NCBI RefSeq assembly: GCF_000219625.1
Contig: NC_018212.1
Coordinates: 2,436,501-2,500,500 of the forward strand
DNA from: Zymoseptoria tritici IPO323
Lineage: Eukaryota > Ascomycota > Dothideomycetes > Mycosphaerellales > Mycosphaerellaceae
Length of the DNA: 64,000 nucleotides
Direction of reading: 5' to 3'
This document shows positions 30,460 to 63,235 of this stretch, in pieces; the first letter of the stretch is position 1, and each line of letters starts with the position of its first letter. The notes beneath the pieces are model-generated. The model made no database searches. It was not told the origin of the DNA and saw only the letters and a list, made by a program, of their open reading frames with translations. The position numbers and the translations under genes were made by a program.

Positions 30460-31239
30460 ATGGGTCGCAACCAAGAGATCAGGGAATATGCATAGGCGGA
30501 AAGAACTGGAAACATGGAAGCATCAAGAATATCGAGGGAGAGCAGGACCTTTGAGTTACACTGTCATCAGCCGGGCGATAGAGCATAGACTCAAGGTTAC
30601 AGGGACAAGGCTCAAATTTGTCAAAAGCGGAACGAACTGAGTGTGGTTGGCGGTGAATGAACAGTGCCGGTGCATGCGATGCAGAGTAACGACACTTACA
30701 TGCTCTCACCATGCTTTTCGCAATCTTATTTCGAGCAAGAATCCCAGAGCAAGGAGCACTCTAATGTGTCCCACGAGTTAGAACGTTGGAGAAAAACCGC
30801 TGTCCAGCCAGCGGTAAGTAGGTGTAATCAGTCAGAGCTCACCAAGTAGACTGAAGCCGCCCCGAAGACGAGTCCGTTCTCACCCTGCTTCCCCCTAAGT
30901 TGGGTGTCTTCATTTTCCTTGCTGTCCTTGATTTCTACCGTAGGCGTGATTGTTCAGGCCAGATTCCTTCAAGCCATTCGGCAGAGCTGGCGCGAGGTTT
31001 CAAACCTGAAGCCCATCACCAAGCCGCCAGCGGCGTGGACCAGAGACAGCTTCGCTCGTTGGCCATATGACCTAGACTGCCCATTCACTCGTCGGACCAG
31101 TCACGTTACGGCCTGTGCCGTCCCGATCCCGTTTGTCTTCTCGACTGACTCCCTCCCGACCCTCCTACAAACGGGACCACTTCTCCAACTGTATTCCGCC
31201 GCCTCGTACCCAGGTTCTTAGCTTTGAGAAAATACCGAC
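30460..31239. other. Intergenic, 780 bases
   Basis: No gene recognised. It should contain the terminator of copy 2 and the promoter of copy 3. Confidence 0.4.
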
Positions 31240-32505
31240 ATGATGGCGCATGCAAGCTTTCCGTCCACATTGCCTTCGGCAGACATGGTCACCGTGCCGG
31301 AAACGTCAAACGCTGCAGCGCAATTCTTCGGGATCTACGAGATGGTCGAGCAAGTCATGCAATACATGGAGCCTGCGCATATTCTACGGAGCCAGAAAGT
31401 ATCGCGCACGTTCCGAGAGGTTGTTCGGTCCAGTCCTCGCGTACAAACAGCCGCGTACCTGAGACCGCCAATTGATGCCAGGAGGCCCATCTGGCAAGTG
31501 GTATATCGAGGAAGTCAGCCGTTCAAGATCATATATCACCCATGCCGAAGCACATATCGGAAAACCATGGATCGTTCAATGGCGGAGAGAGTCACGAGCG
31601 GACCCATGCGCCACATCGACTACACCGGCGAGAATGGCCAGTTGAACATATCTCCTGCCCAGCCAAATCCGAGCATTCTGAGGTTCTCCAAGCCTCTCAT
31701 GACCGACGTCACTCTTTGCGGCTGCCCGACCTGCATAATGTCGGAGGACGTGGGCTGGCGCTTCCGAGAAGGCGAGAACGACCGACAACCACGGATCATG
31801 ACTACCACTTTTCCCAGCATCCCGCTGCAAGACCTGGTAGCTAAGAACAGTTCGTGCCTGGGCATGTTCCTGAGCTCGCCACCAATCACACGCGCCACAA
31901 TCATCCTCGCACTAACAGGCCCAGAGACTATCAAGGGAGTATTCCCGACCTGCAGACACCACATGGCAAGACCCGGTGGAATCACGGTGCGGCATCTCCT
32001 TGAAGCTGCAGAGCGCCGTGGTCCGAAGCTGGTGATTCACTCGATATGGCCGCACGGCGATTACTGCTGGGCCACAGAGCAGACGCAGGAGCGGGTTCGG
32101 CTGTGGGAAGTCGGAGCGCCATGCAAGAAAGTCCTGAGAGACAAAGCGATGAGTGAGCAGGAGGTCAAAGAGCAAGAAGTCCGAAAGCAGGAGCTCAAGC
32201 AAGAAGAAGTCAAAGCGCAGGAGGTCAAAGAAAAGGCACTCGCGACGAAAGAACTCGAGCAGCGAGAGGCCAAAGCGAAGAGAGTCAAGGAAGCCGAGCG
32301 TAGAGATCGAAAGCTGAAAGAAGCTGAGTTCAAAGCCAACATTATGAGGAACCAGGAGAGCGATCAAATCAGCGAAGCTAAAAAGAGTTGTCATCGACCT
32401 ACGGCGCCGCATACTCTCGCAAAGTGCCTGATCTCCGACGAAGGCAGGGTGAAGGCCAAGCCAACTCAGAGCAGTGATTGGAGAGGATTTACATTTGGAG
32501 CGTGA
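31240..32505 (+). CDS. F-box-like protein, family B copy 3, with coiled-coil tail
   Basis: Single exon, 421 aa, starting at ATGATGGCGCATG (31240). F-box-like domain at about residues 26-68 (AQFFGIYEMVEQVMQYM, PAHILRSQKVSRTFREVV). Then LCGCPTC, KNSSCLGMFLSSPPI, GITVRHLLEAAE, and SIWPHGDY leading to ERVRLWEVG. From about residue 300 there is a highly charged K/E/Q repeat tail (units of the type EVKEQEVRKQEL and KAQEVKEKAL) that should form a long helix or coiled coil. Copies 1 and 2 lack it. It may give dimerisation or a partner-binding rod; that is inference. Confidence 0.82.
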   Translation: MMAHASFPSTLPSADMVTVPETSNAAAQFFGIYEMVEQVMQYMEPAHILRSQKVSRTFREVVRSSPRVQTAAYLRPPIDARRPIWQVVYRGSQPFKIIYHPCRSTYRKTMDRSMAERVTSGPMRHIDYTGENGQLNISPAQPNPSILRFSKPLMTDVTLCGCPTCIMSEDVGWRFREGENDRQPRIMTTTFPSIPLQDLVAKNSSCLGMFLSSPPITRATIILALTGPETIKGVFPTCRHHMARPGGITVRHLLEAAERRGPKLVIHSIWPHGDYCWATEQTQERVRLWEVGAPCKKVLRDKAMSEQEVKEQEVRKQELKQEEVKAQEVKEKALATKELEQREAKAKRVKEAERRDRKLKEAEFKANIMRNQESDQISEAKKSCHRPTAPHTLAKCLISDEGRVKAKPTQSSDWRGFTFGA

Positions 32506-53620: not shown

Positions 53621-55650
53621 GGTTGTTTCTTGTTGATGAGGGACTGATTGATCGATAAAGGATTTTGCTGACTGACAATACGTTGATTCTTTCGACGCTC
53701 GGCGATCTTGTTGGTAGGAGAGTAAGAAAGTGTTCTGAAGCCATGGCCGCTGTTATGTGCTGTCTACCCTCTAGAGACTTATTTACTGCGTGGTCGAAGT
53801 ACAACCTCAAGCTCCATTCAATGTGTACAGGTGGGATCGGATCGGCGAGGCATGCAGTAGTGAATGAATCATCGTTGATTATGTCCCCCTCCTCATCTTC
53901 CTCTCCTGCTGTCCGGCTGAGCTGAACGGGCTGTGCTCGTCTCGCTCGAAGGGTCGGACTTGGAGAACATCGACTGGATATATCATGATGGACCATAGAG
54001 GGTGAACTGCGGTAGTCGACCAGAGTTCTGAGTGTGATATCTCAGGCCGCTGCTATTCTGGCAGGGTGGGCTGGGTCAATCGACCTGGCCACGGGCTCAA
54101 CCATCGAGTATGCTGACGCTGTTCAGGCAAGCCTGTCTCCGTTTACAGACCGGTGGATGTCGCTCTCGTCACGTGTTGATGCCTTATTTTGTGCCTCATC
54201 CTCAAGCTTCACCCACCGTGTTTGGTCATCGACTTGGGATCCAAGTTTTTTGGTGGACGGATTTGGTGCATTGATCGAGGGCTGGAACAACCACTTCCTA
54301 ACGCCGCATAGACAAGCATGCAATTGGAGTGGATAGAGCGTCCTCTAGCGAGACTCCTCGTGCAATTAGTTTGTGGGATAGTAGTGTGGTATTAGCATGA
54401 TAAATAGCGACTTTCAGAAGCCATTTAGTACTAGATAGATGTCCTTTTTGGCATAGCAGTTCCTAATTTACTAAGCCTGCAGTTGTGCACGTATAAAAAT
54501 GAAATCTATCGCGTTGAAATCGCCGTGAAAAACTGCACAGCCAAGGATAGGTTGCACATTAGTGCGAGTGTTGGGTGTTGGGTGGTATTTGCGTACATGG
54601 CTATCTGGTAACACGGATATGTCCCTTTTGTGCGAATATTCCTCAGACGCTCCGCTGTAGAGTCCAGCCAGCCCTATATATAGAGAAGGAAGGTAGTAGT
54701 AGTGGAAGGTGGTATAGATCGTGTGGAAGGAAGTTATCGGATCCGGTAATTTTCGTCACGCAGTGACGTAAGCTGGCAAAGGACTCGGAACTGGAGCGAC
54801 TGAACCGGAGGCAGAGGCAAGCAACGTATGGCCGAACATCGGCGTTGAATTCTCCACTAGCCATGAACATCCCTTCAGTGCTGCATCGAACAGTCAGCCT
54901 GGATTCGTTCTCCGTTTTCCGGGAGAGCACAGAGTACAATGCCGAGATGCGGAGACAAGGTCTTGCCAATGCGATGACTGGAGTGCGGCGCGATGGAAGG
55001 AGCACGAGTTTATGGCTCACGCTCTACTCGATGTAGAGTCAACGATCTCGAAAGCTGTTATGATCGCCGGGACGACTGAGACACAGCGTAGGTCGTCGCT
55101 GGCTTCTGGAAGCGTGCTACGTCTCACCCAACGCCGCATACGAGAATCTCTTGAATGTCACAGGAATTTAGCGTACCACACTTGTGGTGGACTCTTTTTA
55201 TCGAGAAGGTGGTGTGCTCGTAACAACGCCCTTAAGCAAAGAGCGATCTTTCGAATACGACTCTCTTTCGACTATCTTTAGACAAGCGAGCCGACCGAGC
55301 GAGGTAACGAGAGACGGAGGGAAGTGAGTACTAAGGAGCCCGAGGAAAGAGTCTAATCGCGGGCGCTAAACTTCCGTGACATTCAAGGCAAACTGTCTCG
55401 GCGCTGAACCAAGGAATGCTGACATGCAGCTGTCGTGCAACGCCACACCAGCCCTTGTGCGACGGAACCGACTGAAATAAAGGGCCGCAATCTCCCACAG
55501 TTAAAGCACTGTCCGAAGCTCAGTATCACAGCCTGAACCATAAGCGGCAACGTCACAATCGTCGGCATCCAACCCTACATCGAAAGACGTTTCAGCATCG
55601 TCATCCTCGCCTAGACTCAACATCAGTGCCTCGACGCCTCCACCGCCATT
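53621..55650. other. Gene-poor 2-kb region, A+T-richer in its middle
   Basis: No gene recognised. A perfect inverted repeat CGTCAC-GCA-GTGACG lies near 54755-54769. A GAGCCGACCGAGCGAGG stretch (near 55285) and following A/G-rich phrases look like the edge of an old mobile element, but no terminal repeats or target duplications could be paired. A short minus-strand frame (54123-54323) has no motif. Confidence 0.35.
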
Positions 55651-55956
55651 ATGCCTCCAGCCATCAGCCTTACTATGCTGGCCTTTGCTGGTCTCCTCTC
55701 TTATCAAGTTCTCGCGAAAGGGCCATCTGCCTCGTGCACTACCACTATGACCGAATTTCCAGGCTGCTGTCCATCCTACCCGGGAGCCACGACAACATCG
55801 TCCATACCATGCGGAGGATGTGCCTTGGAGAAAGTCACCGAGACCGTGCAATGCTTTGCGCCTTGCGAGACGACCACCTTGACGGATCTGGCTTTCACGA
55901 CGACGGAGTGGGCTTGTGCAGCTACGGGAGATTGTGGAAAAGTTGGAGGGAAGTGA
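55651..55956 (+). CDS. Small cysteine-rich secreted protein (candidate effector)
   Basis: 101 aa, ATG at 55651. Residues 1-22 (MPPAISLTMLAFAGLLSYQV and following) form a signal peptide. The mature 79 residues hold nine cysteines (29, 39, 40, 54, 57, 68, 72, 89, 95) in a T/S-rich context, including a CC pair and two C-x(2-3)-C pairs. Small, secreted and Cys-rich fits the definition of a fungal effector candidate. No known family recognised, and the odd cysteine number leaves one free or in an intermolecular bond. Confidence 0.7.
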   Translation: MPPAISLTMLAFAGLLSYQVLAKGPSASCTTTMTEFPGCCPSYPGATTTSSIPCGGCALEKVTETVQCFAPCETTTLTDLAFTTTEWACAATGDCGKVGGK

Positions 55957-56283: not shown

Positions 56284-56912
56284 TCACTCCGAATCGTCCT
56301 GCTCCTCCTGCTCCACATCATCCTCCTCAGACTCCTGCTCCGAAGAGTCTTCCTCCCCAGTGCCTTGCACCTTGACTGGCACTTGAGTAGCACGTCCTTG
56401 AAGGGAGCCACTGTCGCGTATTGGAAGACTCATCAACGCCTGGTTGCTGGTGTCGGCTGGCGCGTACTGAAGACCACCAGCTCTACGATCGACTGGCGTG
56501 ATCGCTTCCGTGGTAGGCTGCGCAGCTGGATTCACAGCTTGGGTAGGAGCGGCAGGGAGTGCGGTTCCGCCGGTCGAAGTCGTGGCGGCGGCGGCGGCGG
56601 CTGGAGCAGCAGTGCCTTGGCTATAAAGATGTTAGCACATTACTCACGGGTACATTCTCCTCGACGCAACACATACTCTCTGCACAAGTGCGGTCTTTTG
56701 ACGCGAATACATCTGCCGCAAGGACGACCAGGATCGCATGGACGATGGCCACGGACACACTCAGTGCAGCGCGCGCGCTTGCCCATCCGAGTCTTCTTCG
56801 ATCCCTTGGACGGCGGGGGAGGTGACTTCCTGCTCTCTTTCTTGCTGCTGTCGTTCGAGCCCATGCCGAAGTTGAGCTTGCCACGGGTGCCGTAGGTGTG
56901 CGCGGTGTCCAT
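56284..56912 (-). CDS. Mini Zn(2)Cys(6) zinc-cluster protein 1
   Basis: Exons 56912-56677 and 56620-56284 give 190 aa. The 56-base intron has donor GTATGT, branch GCTAAC and acceptor TATAG; phase 2. The N-terminus is basic with SPPPP (30-34). Then a C6 cluster follows with C49, C52, C59, C65, C68 and C77, spacing C-x2-C-x6-C-x5-C-x2-C-x8-C, which fits fungal binuclear zinc-cluster DNA-binding domains. The usual lysine/arginine run between C2 and C3 is replaced by VRGHRP. Exon 2 starts D-Q-G, runs through an alanine tract, and ends with LMSLPIRDSGSLQG, VKVQGTGEED and an acidic tail. There is no room for the large middle homology region of classical factors. Probably nuclear, either DNA-binding or interfering with larger factors; inference. 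Confidence 0.75.
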
Positions 56913-57134
56913 GGTGAAGTCGAGAGATTGAGCAGACTGTGAGGGTATTTATGATGACGACTTCCGGGACGCGCGCTGGTTTCAGCGAATGAAGTACGCG
57001 TGAGTCTGCCGAGGGAGGTTGGTGTCGTGTTCGGTGAAGATGTAGCAGATGTGTCGTGAAAAGATTTGTATAAGCGAGAAGAAGAGTGCTGAAGAACGGC
57101 TGCTAGCGCCCCCCAGAGTACGGAGCGGGCCATA

Positions 57135-57162
57135 TTCGGCTTGCGAAGTGAATGACAATAGC
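57135..57162. promoter_or_regulatory. 28-base element upstream of zinc-cluster gene 1
   Basis: TTCGGCT at 57135 followed by TGCGAAGTGAATGACAATAG (57142-57161). It is identical in 27 of 28 positions to 58434-58461. It lies about 220 bases before the ATG at 56912. Confidence 0.6.
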
Positions 57163-57815
57163 GTTTCTCCTACCCAGTGTCCAAAAGATAGATGCAGCTA
57201 TGCAGAGGCACATCGAAACAGACGCAGGATAATCGAAGACGTTTTCTAGTCTCTCTGATATACAAAGAGCGGCCCTGGCAAATCAGCGATGCAAAAGAAG
57301 CCGCAGGAAGCATTTGCGCGTATCGTGTCTAGTAGTGCGACAAGCAAACATGTCGGACAGAGATCGCACTTTGTCATATGGTACCTTCATTAGGAGACTG
57401 GATCCCCACACAAAGCGTGAGAATCGTATTTCACAAATGAGCACCGTTTGCACACGGAAGGCGACGTCACTGTTTTACACAGTTGAAGAAGCCGTTCAGA
57501 TTCGGAGTAGCATTACTATCCCCTCCCAGCTGCTGTCATGCTCCGTGCGCTAGTACGAAGTTCGGTAGCAAGGCTGCAACGAGCCTTCAGTATATCCTCC
57601 TCGCAAGCAAGTGTTCGGTCTCAAATCCTAAAGCAATGGAACACGTCTCCACCGAAGACACGATCTCATCTTGTCAAACGCAATCCCCAAACACCTACGC
57701 TATGCGTTACGAAAACAAATGCCGCTTCAAATCATTTCCGCAAAACCATGCTACTCCTTCCCGCTTTCAGCATCGCCTATGGACACGCCGCTCCCAGCAA
57801 CGACTCCAATGCAAG

Positions 57816-58261
57816 CTACGAGCCAGAACTGTTGGCCGCGCCAGTGTTGCCTGCGCCCGTGGTACCTCCGCCAGTGTTACCTGCGCCAGTATTGCCAGAG
57901 CCGGACGCGTTGTTCGTCGAGTTCGAACCGGCAGAGGGGAGAGGAACGCCCTGACTAAGGGACTGTCAGCTTACGATCTCCGACGCGCAAAAGCACAAAG
58001 GTGGAATCGAACTCACTCGACACAATCTTCAGGTCGACCGACATGTATGCATCGTCCGCATGGACGCGCACCGTCGCAGTAGCGATGACCTCTCAGACAC
58101 TCGCTGCAACGAGGGCCTTTCTTCACCGGGACGGCCTTCTTCTTTGGCGGAGGTGGTGGTGGCGGCGGAGACTTCTTGTGCTTGTTGCGGTTCTTCAGCT
58201 TGCCATCTTTGAAGAGGCTGACGTCGCTCTTCTTTCTGCCGGTGTGCCAGCTTCGCGCCAT
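57816..58261 (-). CDS. Mini Zn(2)Cys(6) zinc-cluster protein 2
   Basis: Exons 58261-58017 and 57954-57816 give 127 aa. The 62-base intron has donor GTGAGT, branch GCTGAC and acceptor TTAG; phase 2. The N-terminus is basic (KDGKLKNRNKHKK), with eight prolines at 32-39. The cluster is C52, C55, C62, C68, C71 and C80 with the same spacing as gene 1; the sequence RCSECLRGHRYC is nearly that of genes 3 and 4. Exon 2 opens D-Q-G-V-P-L-P-S-A-G, then is a low-complexity N/T/G/S tail of repeated NTGAG/NTGGG units. This is the shortest of the four. The tail is probably unstructured. Confidence 0.75.
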
Positions 58262-58433
58262 TGTTGAGCTGAGGTGAGGTGAGTGCAGAGTGGTAGACGA
58301 TGGTTGGATGGAGTCGCAAGTGTTGGGCGCAAGTTCCCACGTGTAGAGGTGTCGTGACAAATTTGTCGTGGTGAATTTGTACAGGCGAGGAAAAGCGCGG
58401 TCGACGTGATTAGCTAGCGTAGACCGGGGTTTC

Positions 58434-58461
58434 TTCGGCGTGCGAAGTGAATGACAATAGC
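58434..58461. promoter_or_regulatory. 28-base element upstream of zinc-cluster gene 2
   Basis: TTCGGCG at 58434 followed by TGCGAAGTGAATGACAATAG (58441-58460). It is the twin of 57135-57162 and lies about 175 bases before the ATG at 58261. Confidence 0.6.
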
Positions 58462-58874
58462 AGGACTGGACTGGGTATTCCAGGAATGCTGGATTTGGAC
58501 GACATGGACATATACGCCGTTATAGACGTGTCTAATGGACTAGGAAAACGAACAGGCGCTCTTCAAACTCCAACTCCACAGAGACGTGCTCCGAGAACTC
58601 GATAGTGGAGCAATGCCGTCGGGAAACATCCACGGGCAAAGTGCCAAACAACATTGCAAACGAAGCACTACATGCAGTGTCGGAGATGAAGCTCTCTCTC
58701 GGAAATGAAGTCTTCTCGACCATAGCAAAGCTCTACCCAGGCAACTTGAACTGCACAGATGGTGGTGGTCTCAATAAGTATCTGCTCGGTCTCGATTCGC
58801 AGACCAAGACTAGCAACACCTATACGTCAAGATACCGACAGCGAGAGAAGCCTTTCAAATACATGTATCCGCTC

Positions 58875-59383
58875 CTACTTCACATCTACCTTGTGAGAAC
58901 CCTCCTCCTCCGGCACATCATCTTCGCGTTTGGCGTCGTCCGTGTCCGTGCCATTCCCAGGGTTGTCTGCATCGTCATTCGGCCATACGAGCGAGTCTCC
59001 CGCGCCGAAAGCGTTACCCGTCAACGCGGTACTGGAACCGGCGTTGTTGTTTCTCGCAGACGGAAGTGGCACACCTTGCCTGAGAATTTGTCAGCTCGTT
59101 CCCGCATAAGTGTCAACCCGCCGCTTACTCACTCAACGCAGTTTTCTGGACGGCCCACATGGATACAACGCCCGCATGGCCGCGCTCCATCACATGCCCG
59201 GTGGCCTCGTACGCATTCGCTGCATCGCTTGACTCTCCTCCCAAGGGTATTGTCCGTTGGCGGCTTCTTTGGCGGCGGTGGTGGTGGGTCGAACTCTTTC
59301 TCTGTTTCAGGGAGGTCCGGGTTGTAGGGCTTGTGGAGGCTGAGGTTTTGCTTCTTCCTGCTAGTCTCTTTGAGACGGTCCAT
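58875..59383 (-). CDS. Mini Zn(2)Cys(6) zinc-cluster protein 3
   Basis: Exons 59383-59133 and 59079-58875 give 151 aa. The 53-base intron has donor GTGAGT, branch GCTGAC and acceptor TCAG; phase 2. N-terminus MDRLKETSRKKQ, with six prolines at about 33-38. The cluster is C54, C57, C64, C70, C73 and C82 (RCSECVRGHRAC, DGARPCGRC, IHVGRPENC). Exon 2 opens E-Q-G-V-P-L-P-S-A, then N/T/G residues, then an acidic end (NGTDTDDAKREDDVPEEE). The acidic tail could be an activation segment or a partner-binding region; this is not shown by sequence. Confidence 0.75.
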
Positions 59384-59875
59384 TTTGATCGTAGGCCACG
59401 ATACGTTTGAGTTGGAATGAGCGGAGAGTAGTTGAAGTCCACTGGACTTGGAGTGATGTGGTTGGGCTTTGTGATGATAGCGTGCAGGAAAGAGAAGAGT
59501 GGAAACAAGCAGCATGCCGGGGAAACGACGAGCATCGCATTAGCTTCGCCGCGAATGATCTAGCAGAACGAATTGAACTGCTTCGCTTGGCACGTAGTCA
59601 AGAACAGATTCCAGTATCACGCAAGCCGAACAATGTTGTGAGACGGGACGGCAAGATCGAGAGCTTTCCATTGGAATTCCTTGAGTCGGACACGTTTTGT
59701 CTGCTCGTTTGCGAGATCAATGGCATAGCACGAACGAATCGCCGCCGAGAGCTCATGCCATGGTCAAAGAACCAGACTATCGTGATCTTTGCCCACTTCA
59801 AATCCACCCAAGACTCCACTCCAAACGCCGTGAACCCAAAACGCCCGCGCTAATCCCAAGAGACAATGCCAAACT

Positions 59876-60425
59876 TCAATCATCTCCCCCCTCCTCCTCC
59901 TCGCTTCTCGGCGGCGAGTCATCTTCTCCCGTCCCCTGCACTTTCACCTGAACTCGAACACCAGTTCCGGTGAGGGCACCGCCTTCACGAATGGGAAGAC
60001 CCATGAGACCTGGGTTGTCCGTGTCGAATGGGTGGTACTGAACACCGGTGGTAGGCTGTCCAGTTGTCGTGCTGTTTGTGCCGATGGTGGCAGGGGCGGT
60101 CCTGGTCGTTGCCGAAGCGGTTGCAGTCGGAGCGGTGGCAGGAGCACCGGCAGAGGGAAGAGGGACGCCTTGGCTGGAGAGATGAAGTCAGTACCTTATC
60201 TCGTGCAGATGTAGCGCGGCCTTTGACTTACTCGACGCAGTCCTGTGGACGTCCGACCTGAATGCACCGTCCGCATGGGCGCTGTCGGTTGCAATGGCGG
60301 TGTCCGCGCAAACACTCGCTGCAGCGAGTAGGGACGATGGGCGTTTGAGTGGGTGCTGGAGGAGGTGGTGGCGGCATGGTGCCTTTGCCAGAGTTCTTCT
60401 TGCCAGTTCCACGAGTGCGCGCCAT
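59876..60425 (-). CDS. Mini Zn(2)Cys(6) zinc-cluster protein 4
   Basis: Exons 60425-60232 and 60173-59876 give 163 aa. The 58-base intron has donor GTAAGT, branch TACTGAC and acceptor CCAG; phase 2. N-terminus MARTRGTGKKNSGKGT, with six prolines at 18-23. The cluster is C35, C38, C45, C51, C54 and C63 with the same spacing as the others. Exon 2 opens D-Q-G-V-P-L-P-S-A-G, then an A/T-rich stretch, then VQYHPFDTDNPGLMGLPIRE, VKVQGTGEDD and an acidic end. The last block matches protein 1 at the other end of the array rather than its neighbour 3. Confidence 0.77.
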
Positions 60426-61138: not shown

Positions 61139-61930
61139 GGAACCGCTTGCTTGCACTGTCGTCCGTGTTCCTCATCAAACGGGGACACGGTTGAGGCCGA
61201 CATTCCAGGAGCGCAGCTTCATTGAGAGCCATAACGCTGTAAACACCCCATGCAGCTGCCGAATGCTACTATATCGTCCGCATCGTCGATGCGGCAGAGG
61301 GAGAGTACCCTTGCCAGCTAAGCGTTACTGAACACTTATGCCATCGCTGTACTTCAGCAAGCAGAAGGGGTGGAGCGATAATGCGGTGCCGATCAGCACA
61401 GTCAAACCGGAATGGGTCACTTTAACAGGTAAGTTCATCGATGCAAAGTGGCATGTGATAACGTCTAGCGTGAGACACGTAACCCTTTGGCGAAGCGCCG
61501 CATATCGTGCTGTCAGATCCAACGATATGCTTAACGTCGGGCTGAGCAACGCATGAATTTATGCTTGCATCTTGGCCGTACACCCAGTGTAGACCGGAGA
61601 CATTCATTCGCAGGTACCAGAACGATCACTTCAATGCTTTGGCTTTAACAGCACCATACGTCGGGATGAAAAGCCTCCCTGCTCGTTTTGGTAAGCTGCA
61701 CACGCTGCACGCATTTGGTTTCCGGACAAGGAAAGGAAATTTCCGCTTCCGGCTCCGAAGGTCAAAGAGCGCTATCTTCTCGCCGAGAGCAGTGGAAACA
61801 CAATTGGTAGTACTGTTGCCCCAAATTCCATTGCATTTGTTCATGTACGTCGTGGAGCACTTGTGGTTTTTTTCAGGTGTGTAGCCATGTTCAAAATGTT
61901 CTCGATCTCGCAGCAGCGTCCAGCTCCACC
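61139..61930. other. Intergenic, about 790 bases
   Basis: No gene recognised. The long minus-strand frame reaching 61626 is read-through of the xylanase intron and 3' flank, not an extra gene. Confidence 0.45.
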
Positions 61931-63235
61931 TCACTTCTTGCCTCCGCACAGAATTCCATCCAGGAATCTCTGGTAGACTGTCTTCTTCTTCTGCAGATTC
62001 TCGTCCCAGACATCCGCGGAACCTTCTCCGGGAAAGGTACCAGGAATCCAAGAGTATTTGTCGGAGACGCCCTGTTCGCAATTGGTCAGCGAGCCGCACG
62101 ACCTTAATCTGAGATGGAAAGACAATAGGACTCACCCAAAGGGTCATACCAACACATCTCTTCGTCGCAAGACAACTGGACGAAACATTATAGTACACCT
62201 CAGCCTGAACCGCCGTCTTCGCCGGAGTCGCGGGAGTATTCATCCTCACATCCAACTCAGTATAAGCAACATCCACACCCAGAGCAGTAAAGCTCTGCAG
62301 TCTGTTCGTGAGTTCGACTCGTCCTGGTGCAACACCGCCTCCGCTAGACGTGGTCGGCTCAGAGGTGAGATGTGCTTGAAATCCGACGCCATGAATTGGT
62401 CCACCCTTCGACTGGATGTATTTGACGATGCGTTGGGCTCCGGCGGCTTTGACGTCGGAACCTTCGAGGCTGTAGTCGTTGTAGAAGAGTTTGGATTTTG
62501 GTGAGGCGGCGTGGGCGAGCTTGAAGGCGATGGGGAGGAAATCTTCGCCGAGGACGCGGTAGAAGACGCTGTTGCGGTAGGTTCCATTTTCTTCCAGGGC
62601 TTCGTTTACGACGTCCCATCTGTACGTCGAGAGATGCAAGGGTTAGCGTTGACTGCCGAAAGAGGCTGACACTGGACGACTTACCTCGTGCAAACGTCCT
62701 TATACCGCCCCGCAAGCGTATCAATATGATTCTTCATAACAGCAGTGAGCTCAGCCTTGGTGAAGTTTCCATTGGCAACCCAATCAGGCAGCTGACTATG
62801 CCACACCAAATTATGGCAATGGATCTGCACGCCGTGCTTCCTAGCGTAGTCGGCATACTTGTCCGCGCCAGCGAGGGTGAAGTTGTTTTGCTGAGGCTCG
62901 GTGAGACCCCACTTCATGTCGTTCTCCGGAGTGATGCTAGTTGTCGATCGTTAGCAGATATCGGGAAGCTGGAGATATGGATCGATGTACGAGTTGAAGT
63001 CAGCTTTGTTGCCGTAGATCGATGCTTCCACTGTGTCGTTGCGGAATGTGACGGCGGTTCCGATCCAGTCGCGGCCGCGGGATTGCATGGCTTCCCAGAG
63101 ACCTTTGGGTTTCGGTCTATTCGCTGTCAGAGATGAACCAAGGTCGACGATGGTGATTTTTGCTCACGCATGTGGCGTTGCGACGGCATTGCCAGCCATC
63201 GCCAAGGCGGCGAGGACGCTGTTTGTGAGAAGCAT
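61931..63235 (-). CDS. GH10 endo-beta-1,4-xylanase, secreted, five exons
   Basis: Exons 63235-63168, 63116-62991, 62936-62685, 62619-62136 and 62071-61931 give 356 aa. Introns are 51, 54, 65 and 64 nt, all with GT...AG ends and consistent phases (2, 2, 2, 0). Residues 1-20 form a signal peptide; an in-frame ATG 42 bases upstream (63277) is an alternative start. The GH10 barrel spans about 26-345. Landmarks are ITPENDMKW, the HCHNLVWHSQLP strand, the acid/base E155 in WDVVNEAL, FYNDYSLEG, GVGFQAHL and the nucleophile E270 in YTELDVRM. The enzyme hydrolyses internal bonds of xylan in plant cell walls with retention. No carbohydrate-binding module is present. All catalytic parts are intact. Confidence 0.93.

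What the first reader, a model, noticed from the sequence alone, without database searches (positions are those of the whole stretch)
56284..60425. Array of four mini zinc-cluster proteins without a regulatory domain
Four co-oriented genes within 4.2 kb each code for 127-190 aa. All share one architecture: basic start, proline run, one C-x2-C-x6-C-x5-C-x2-C-x8-C cluster, one phase-2 intron, and a short variable tail. Classical Zn(2)Cys(6) factors are several hundred residues with a large middle region; these carry the DNA-binding module almost alone. They could be stand-alone DNA binders, natural competitors of full-length factors, or modules co-opted for another use. The cluster motif is seen in sequence; the role is inference.
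Basis: partly seen in the sequence, partly recalled or inferred. Interest (0 to 1): 0.87.

Follow-up and report, generated by a model that had tools for sequence, protein, structure and literature searches.

The report
Tandem mini zinc-cluster genes, shared tail
A wheat-blotch fungus carries four neighbouring genes, plus a distant fifth, for very small proteins built around a DNA-binding-type zinc cluster, and two of them end in a tail also found on a PHD-finger-like protein, which suggests small adaptors rather than broken transcription factors.

Summary
Four minus-strand, two-exon genes (190, 127, 151, 163 aa) lie at 56284-60425, each with C-x2-C-x6-C-x5-C-x2-C-x8-C and a phase-2 intron just after the cluster. 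The window is Zymoseptoria tritici IPO323 chromosome 7, inside the published H3K27me3-marked, almost silent right arm. Zn_clus support is borderline: one of the four passes Pfam's cut-off. A fifth paralogue, on C3, passes clearly.

They do not look like pieces of larger factors: spacers are 0.5-0.9 kb, no Fungal_trans match lies within 0.8 Mb, and deposited proteins of C, D and E are equally short. Cluster codons are conserved (pN/pS 0.06-0.39) while synonymous sites approach saturation.

The tails of A and D are one ~55-residue module, shared with a PHD-like protein on C9. And the public model of A removes the whole cluster with a longer intron.

Best reading: mini DNA-binding adaptors. DNA binding, expression and partner are untested; silent relics remain a serious rival.

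The parts
56284..56912 (-). Gene A, 190 aa: exon 1 56677..56912, intron 56621..56676 (56 nt, GTATGT..TAG), exon 2 56284..56620; cluster 56682..56768
   Evidence: Spliced model; cluster; Zn_clus 10.8 bits. Deposited model P0007 instead ends exon 1 at 56761 (donor GTGTGT, 140-nt intron), removing the cluster.
57816..58261 (-). Gene B, 127 aa: exon 1 58017..58261, intron 57955..58016 (62 nt), exon 2 57816..57954; cluster 58022..58108; no shared tail, Gly/Asn/Ser/Thr-rich end
   Evidence: Zn_clus 21.5 bits (cut-off 21); not among the proteins returned, so apparently unannotated
58875..59383 (-). Gene C, 151 aa: exon 1 59133..59383, intron 59080..59132 (53 nt), exon 2 58875..59079; cluster 59138..59224
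   Evidence: Zn_clus 19.7 bits; strain ST99CH_3D1 protein P0001 differs by one residue; Z. brevis orthologue P0005 (171 aa, different end)
59876..60425 (-). Gene D, 163 aa: exon 1 60232..60425, intron 60174..60231 (58 nt), exon 2 59876..60173; cluster 60237..60323
   Evidence: Zn_clus 20.8 bits; P0003 (99% identical) and Z. brevis P0004
59891..60049 (-). Tail module of D (the 53-residue query)
   Evidence: Matches A's tail (57%) and a frame on C9 (65%); place G000:C7:2496391-2496549 minus 2436500
56323..56475 (-). Tail module of A
   Evidence: G000:C7:2492823-2492975; also matched by the C9 protein (59%)
58011..58113 (-). Best-conserved DNA stretch of the array (cluster plus donor site), reference copy; other copies 56671-56773, 59127-59229, 60226-60328
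   Evidence: the repeat finder: 60, 71 and 76% identity to the reference; spacing 1340/1116/1099

Best explanation
An old tandem family of miniature Zn(2)Cys(6) proteins. Each has a basic, proline-rich N-terminus, one binuclear cluster and a conserved linker, with no fungal_trans middle domain found. The cluster most likely binds a single short DNA half-site as a monomer. In A and D a C-terminal module, shared with a PHD-finger-like protein, would dock a common nuclear partner, so these work as small DNA-binding adaptors; B and C, which lack it, would bind the same class of site without recruiting that partner. Shown here: gene structure, paralogy, conservation of the cluster, sharing of the tail, absence of a detected middle domain nearby. 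Inferred: zinc and DNA binding, monomeric mode, nuclear location, partner docking. The locus lies in a chromosome arm published as silenced, so any expression is probably conditional.
For: Same exon plan and phase in 5 of 5 paralogues. All six Cys and the RGHR and RPCxRC blocks invariant in 5 of 5. pN/pS over 40 codons 0.06-0.39 in all 10 pairs, with pS 0.64-1.01. In the neutral simulations, made for 5 of these 10 pairs, 0 of 1000 runs fell to the observed ratio for four pairs and 2 of 1000 for A-D. Z. tritici versus Z. brevis: cluster+linker 38/40 (D) and 37/40 (C) residues identical, against 22/34 for D's mid part and 28/59 for C's end. Tail shared by D with A (E 7.1e-13) and with the C9 protein (E 5.2e-12) in the own genome; D's tail keeps 48/56 residues in Z. 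brevis. The nearest Fungal_trans/Fungal_trans_2 match (E 0.01 or better) is 819,720 bases from the array and 114,544 from E, whereas 68 of the best 100 of 138 Zn_clus matches have one within 4 kb downstream. Best match among solved structures is the Pho7 DNA-binding domain, E 3e-4; the Pho7 paper gives monomeric binding as one of two possibilities and cites AlcR as a monomeric case (passages).
Against: Three of four array proteins fall under the Pfam cut-off and none of the four is listed by the genome-wide Zn_clus search. The deposited A proteins of Z. tritici and Z. brevis omit the cluster. B was not returned by the protein searches. The end of C is poorly conserved and of another length in Z. 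brevis. The tail is not better conserved between species than the rest of its protein in A (52/61 against 43/49 and 42/49) or in the C9 protein (47/55 against 129/154); tail pN/pS is 0.37-0.45 and was not tested by simulation (ratios). The segment is described as almost untranscribed, and loss of H3K27me3 alone did not raise the number of expressed genes in this fungus (PMC6510446, passages). AlphaFold models were too poor to use (mean pLDDT 46.5 and 36.3). No relative outside Zymoseptoria was found, so function cannot be borrowed. 32 of the best 100 Zn_clus matches also have no detected middle domain nearby, so that lack alone is not rare.
Confidence: 0.5

Rival explanations
1. Natural competitors: the minis occupy half-sites of full-length Zn(2)Cys(6) factors and so damp them, without recruiting anything.
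For: B, C and E have a cluster but no shared tail; no middle domain detected nearby.
Against: No full-length factor in the genome was found with a closely similar cluster: the nearest are at E 0.0018 and 0.0033 with 41-43% identity, so there is no obvious target. A and D keep a shared tail, which pure competitors would not need.
Confidence: 0.2
2. Silent relics: a tandem family in facultative heterochromatin that is decaying and seldom or never makes protein.
For: Location in a segment described as nearly untranscribed (passages); C's end differs in length in Z. brevis; B apparently unannotated.
Against: Cluster codons conserved while synonymous sites are near saturation; intact frames and introns in 5 of 5; cluster+linker 37-38 of 40 residues identical between species in C and D.
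Confidence: 0.2
3. The cluster has been co-opted for something other than sequence-specific DNA binding, such as RNA or protein binding, or zinc buffering.
For: Zn_clus scores are weak, and A's deposited model drops the cluster while keeping the tail.
Against: GAL4-type spacing and Arg/His residues between the second and third Cys are retained, and the best match in solved structures is a DNA-binding domain.
Confidence: 0.08
4. Mis-called fragments: the true genes are larger factors whose other exons were missed.
For: Mis-predicted Zn2C6 genes are common in fungal annotation (CeGAL paper PMC10141177, abstract and passages).
Against: Spacers of 492, 613 and 903 bp; no Fungal_trans match within 0.8 Mb; the same ends in deposited C, D and E and the same short plan at an unlinked locus.
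Confidence: 0.02

Closest known systems
Zn(2)Cys(6) binuclear cluster (Pfam PF00172), GAL4 type
   Same: Six Cys with spacing 2-6-5-2-8 and Arg/His residues between the second and third Cys
   Different: Three of four array proteins are below the Pfam cut-off; no fungal_trans middle domain detected; 121-190 aa in all
Pho7 of Schizosaccharomyces pombe (PDB 6o19; 6e33 matches almost alike under the name C27B12.11c)
   Same: Closest solved sequence: RPCxRCI block and first half of the cluster (E 3e-4); its site holds a single CGG and no symmetry (PMC5559640, passages)
   Different: In Pho7 the Zn2Cys6 domain is central and an N domain precedes it (passages); its last Cys spacing is two residues shorter in the alignment
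CeGAL family (Zn2C6 plus middle homology domain)
   Same: Shares the type of DNA-binding module
   Different: The family is defined by the Zn2C6-MHD pair (PMC10141177, abstract); no MHD detected here
PHD-finger-like protein at G000:C9:131867-132577 (+), P0009/P0010/P0011
   Same: Carries the same C-terminal module as A and D
   Different: N-terminal part is PHD-like (PF00628 21.0 bits, cut-off 24), with no Zn(2)Cys(6) match
Single-domain 'microproteins' that titrate larger factors (recalled concept, from no call)
   Same: A DNA-binding module almost alone, as in B
   Different: No parent full-length factor identified; A and D have a further shared module

Membership tests
PF00172 Zn_clus | Six Cys with GAL4-type spacing | tested here: met
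   4 of 4 array genes and E
PF00172 Zn_clus | Score over Pfam's gathering cut-off (21 bits) | tested here: inconclusive
   B 21.5 and E 31.2 pass; D 20.8, C 19.7 and A 10.8 do not; genome search lists only E
PF00172 Zn_clus | Binds two zinc ions and DNA | not testable with these tools
   Needs purified protein; AlphaFold model too poor
CeGAL (Zn2C6-MHD transcription factor) | Fungal_trans / middle homology domain in the same protein | tested here: not met
   Nearest PF04082 or PF11951 match is 819,720 bases from the array and 114,544 from E; Pfam finds none in the five proteins
Dimeric GAL4-type factor | Coiled-coil dimerisation helix after the linker | not tested
   No coiled-coil program was run; exon 2 looks rich in Pro/Ala/Gly/Thr/Asn by eye, and the structure model shows no helix but has low confidence
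PHD-finger protein | PHD finger | tested here: not met
   The five proteins show no PHD match; only the tail of A and D is shared with the PHD-like C9 protein
Ran-binding domain (Nup2 type, name recalled) | Tail homologous to a Ran-binding domain | tested here: inconclusive
   Profile match to ABR034Wp E 0.02 only; D's tail alone E 0.91, A's tail no such match; no Pfam match in 5 of 5 tails; against the genome's own Ran_BP1 match on C5, 33, 46 and 72 of 500 shuffles score as well

The most novel reading that the evidence does not exclude
A two-branch adaptor family in Zymoseptoria: a ~55-residue docking tail is carried either by DNA-binding mini zinc clusters (A, D) or by a PHD-like chromatin reader (C9), so that one partner is brought to DNA sites or to histone marks; tail-less B and C are built-in competitors, and gene A switches between a DNA-binding and a cluster-less form through two phase-matched donor sites.
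Probability: 0.17. Interest if true: 0.78.

Novelty: new variant of a known kind. Interest (0 to 1): 0.52.

Why it matters
Zn(2)Cys(6) proteins are a very large fungal regulator class and are usually thought of as large factors with a middle domain. A conserved family that keeps the cluster without that domain, and in two members adds a tail also found on a PHD-like protein, gives a natural test of what the DNA-binding module can do by itself. It also gives the silenced chromosome-7 arm of a wheat pathogen candidate small DNA-binding genes.

Tried and rejected
Onward splicing into larger genes: rejected on spacer sizes, absence of Fungal_trans matches and deposited proteins. Chance motif: rejected. 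Recent duplication: rejected; synonymous differences are near saturation. Origin from a full-length factor in this genome: none close; the nearest are L016 (frame with a Fungal_trans match) and L017 (frame with a HKKRGRPRLREE stretch, recalled from PAS-type factors), E 0.0018 and 0.0033. Tail as a Nup2-type Ran-binding fragment: looked at because of a profile match at E 0.02, not upheld; the three rows against the C2 locus were read on the wrong strand and are dropped. Structure prediction: two jobs, both unusable, so no fold search was made. Literature: no paper naming the deposited loci I tried; listings on mini or small Zn(2)Cys(6) proteins and on Zymoseptoria showed no title on such genes (listings only). 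That is absence by these terms in one open library.
Full report
Where it is. The window lies at C7:2436501-2500500 of a 39,686,251-base genome in 21 contigs. Schotanus et al. [quoted passage not shown] the array, at about 2.493-2.497 Mb, is inside it. Passages of PMC7448473 report like hallmarks in the matching regions of Z. pseudotritici and Z. brevis and say that the genes there are mostly species-specific; one of PMC6342133 reports silence in three isolates; one of PMC13221638 high H3K27me3 overlap on chromosome 7. Passages of PMC6510446 say that removing H3K27me3 did not raise the number of expressed genes, so that mark alone may not be what keeps the array quiet. I did not see expression values for these genes.

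The genes. All four are on the minus strand, so in the direction of transcription the order is D, C, B, A. Coordinates are in the parts list. Each intron is 53-62 nt with donor GTATGT (A), GTGAGT (B, C) or GTAAGT (D) and falls in phase 2, splitting the second codon after the sixth Cys. The strict Cys spacing is found at exactly these four places in the six frames and in none of 100 Markov-simulated windows. DNA similarity between the copies is greatest over the 103 nt of cluster plus donor (60-76% to the reference copy); A and B also share 40 nt (85%) upstream.

A fifth member. A protein search of the own genome finds five loci, the fifth (E) at C3:2139370-2139576. It has the same two exons and phase, 121 aa, and the strongest Zn_clus score, 31.2 bits. 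The E model was cut at the wrong acceptor base; one search has the right one. A 121-aa protein with one residue different is deposited from strain ST99CH_3D1 (P0002).

How firm is the family assignment. Against Pfam's cut-off of 21 bits, B (21.5) and E pass; D (20.8), C (19.7) and A (10.8) do not. The six-frame genome search with the same model gives 138 matches, E among them and none of the array genes. The Cys pattern, the paralogy to E and the Pho7 match carry the assignment more than the Pfam score.

Selection. Over the 40 codons of cluster and linker, the ten pairs have pN/pS of 0.06 (B-C) to 0.39 (A-D), while pS is 0.64-1.01, near saturation. I simulated neutral change for 5 of the 10 pairs: in four no run of 1000 was as low as observed, in A-D 2 of 1000. 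The simulation ignores codon and base bias and is a rough null. Between Z. tritici and Z. brevis, cluster plus linker keeps 38 of 40 (D) and 37 of 40 (C) residues, a larger share than the other parts of either protein.

No middle domain. Of 91 Fungal_trans and 40 Fungal_trans_2 matches (E 0.01 or better) in the genome, the nearest to the array is 819,720 bases away and the nearest to E 114,544. As a base rate, 68 of the best 100 of 138 Zn_clus matches have one within 4 kb downstream on the same strand (the other 38 were not used). So 32 of 100 also lack one by this crude test, and the lack by itself is not special; the short spacers, the like ends of deposited C, D and E, and the repeated plan at C3 are what make the minis convincing.

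The tail. The last ~55 residues of A and D align well. A genome search with D's tail gives three places: D itself, A (57%, E 7.1e-13) and a frame on C9 (65%, E 5.2e-12). The C9 protein is PHD-like (PF00628 21.0 bits under a cut-off of 24; 22.1 for P0009). Two of its three deposited forms (P0009 from Z. tritici, P0011 from Z. brevis) are named PHD-type, and searching the genome with it returns the tails of A and D again. None of 5 tails matches a Pfam family. Tail pN/pS is 0.45 (A-D), 0.42 (A-C9) and 0.37 (D-C9), computed without simulation. Between species the tail is the second-best kept part of D (48/56), but in A (52/61) and in the C9 protein (47/55) it is kept no better than the rest. I read it as a partner-docking module; that is inference.

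Gene A. The deposited A protein of IPO323 (P0007) is reproduced exactly if exon 1 ends at 56761 with donor GTGTGT and a 140-nt intron, which removes the cluster; the Z. brevis protein (P0008) reads the same across that junction. The two donors are in the same phase. This may be a gene-finder choice, perhaps copied between species, or real alternative splicing. The conserved cluster codons of A (pN/pS 0.32-0.39 with the others) argue that the cluster is, or was until recently, translated. I could not see the DNA of Z. brevis.

Relatives. The alignment search scored the 7,991 candidates sharing most words, from 5.77 billion proteins, and returned 8, of which 7 carry a name and all 7 are Zymoseptoria; the eighth (P0006) has no name and is a frame holding E's first exon. 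The region search with B's cluster had 4 candidates, all of them among those 8. B itself was returned by neither. Z. brevis has three neighbours, TI39_contig4202g00015, 16 and 17, matching D, C and A. With synonymous sites near saturation the family is probably older than the species splits in the genus, so absence elsewhere is either loss or limited search reach.

How it may work. The nearest solved sequence is the Pho7 DNA-binding domain (E 3e-4). Pho7's site holds one CGG and no symmetry, and monomeric binding is one of two options its authors give (PMC5559640, passages). With no middle domain detected, and no dimer helix that I can see by eye, monomeric half-site binding is the simplest reading for the minis. 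A and D would add recruitment through the shared tail; B and C would not. None of this is tested, and silent relics remain a serious rival because of the chromatin setting.

Verdict. A real, conserved, tandem mini Zn(2)Cys(6) family: a new variant of a known kind. The shared tail and the two possible forms of A raise the interest above an ordinary duplicate array; lack of any expression or binding evidence keeps it moderate.

Noticed in passing
G000:C9:131867-132577 (+), loci L020, L021, L023: PHD-finger-like protein with the same C-terminal module as A and D; the one protein search made with it returned only Zymoseptoria proteins (3 of 3).
   Followed up: partly
window 56761..56912 and 56620: The public model of gene A uses a GTGTGT donor inside the cluster, in the same phase as the GTATGT donor used here, giving a protein without the zinc cluster.
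   Followed up: partly
L004 1206..1346 (-): The frame of paralogue E stays open for 47 codons after its stop, with many acidic residues; a strain ST99CH_3D1 protein (P0002) ends at the same place.
   Followed up: partly
L004 559..765 (-): Frame near paralogue E that looks by eye like the start of a galactokinase; no family search was made.
   Followed up: no
window 55651..55956 (+): 101-aa Cys-rich frame with what looks by eye like a signal peptide, convergent with gene A; no Pfam match at E 0.001. Looks like a small secreted protein.
   Followed up: no
window 61629..62917 (-): Glycosyl hydrolase family 10 (xylanase-like) exons just upstream of gene D (152.6 and 91.1 bits).
   Followed up: no
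window 57538..57954 (+): 138-aa open frame antisense to exon 2 of gene B, which may be why B was not annotated.
   Followed up: no
window 31228..32502 (+): 425-aa frame with an F-box match of 22.5 bits (cut-off 20.5).
   Followed up: no
window 55150-55173 and 55364-55387: Inverted repeat, arms of 24 nt, 88% complementary, 190 nt apart.
   Followed up: no
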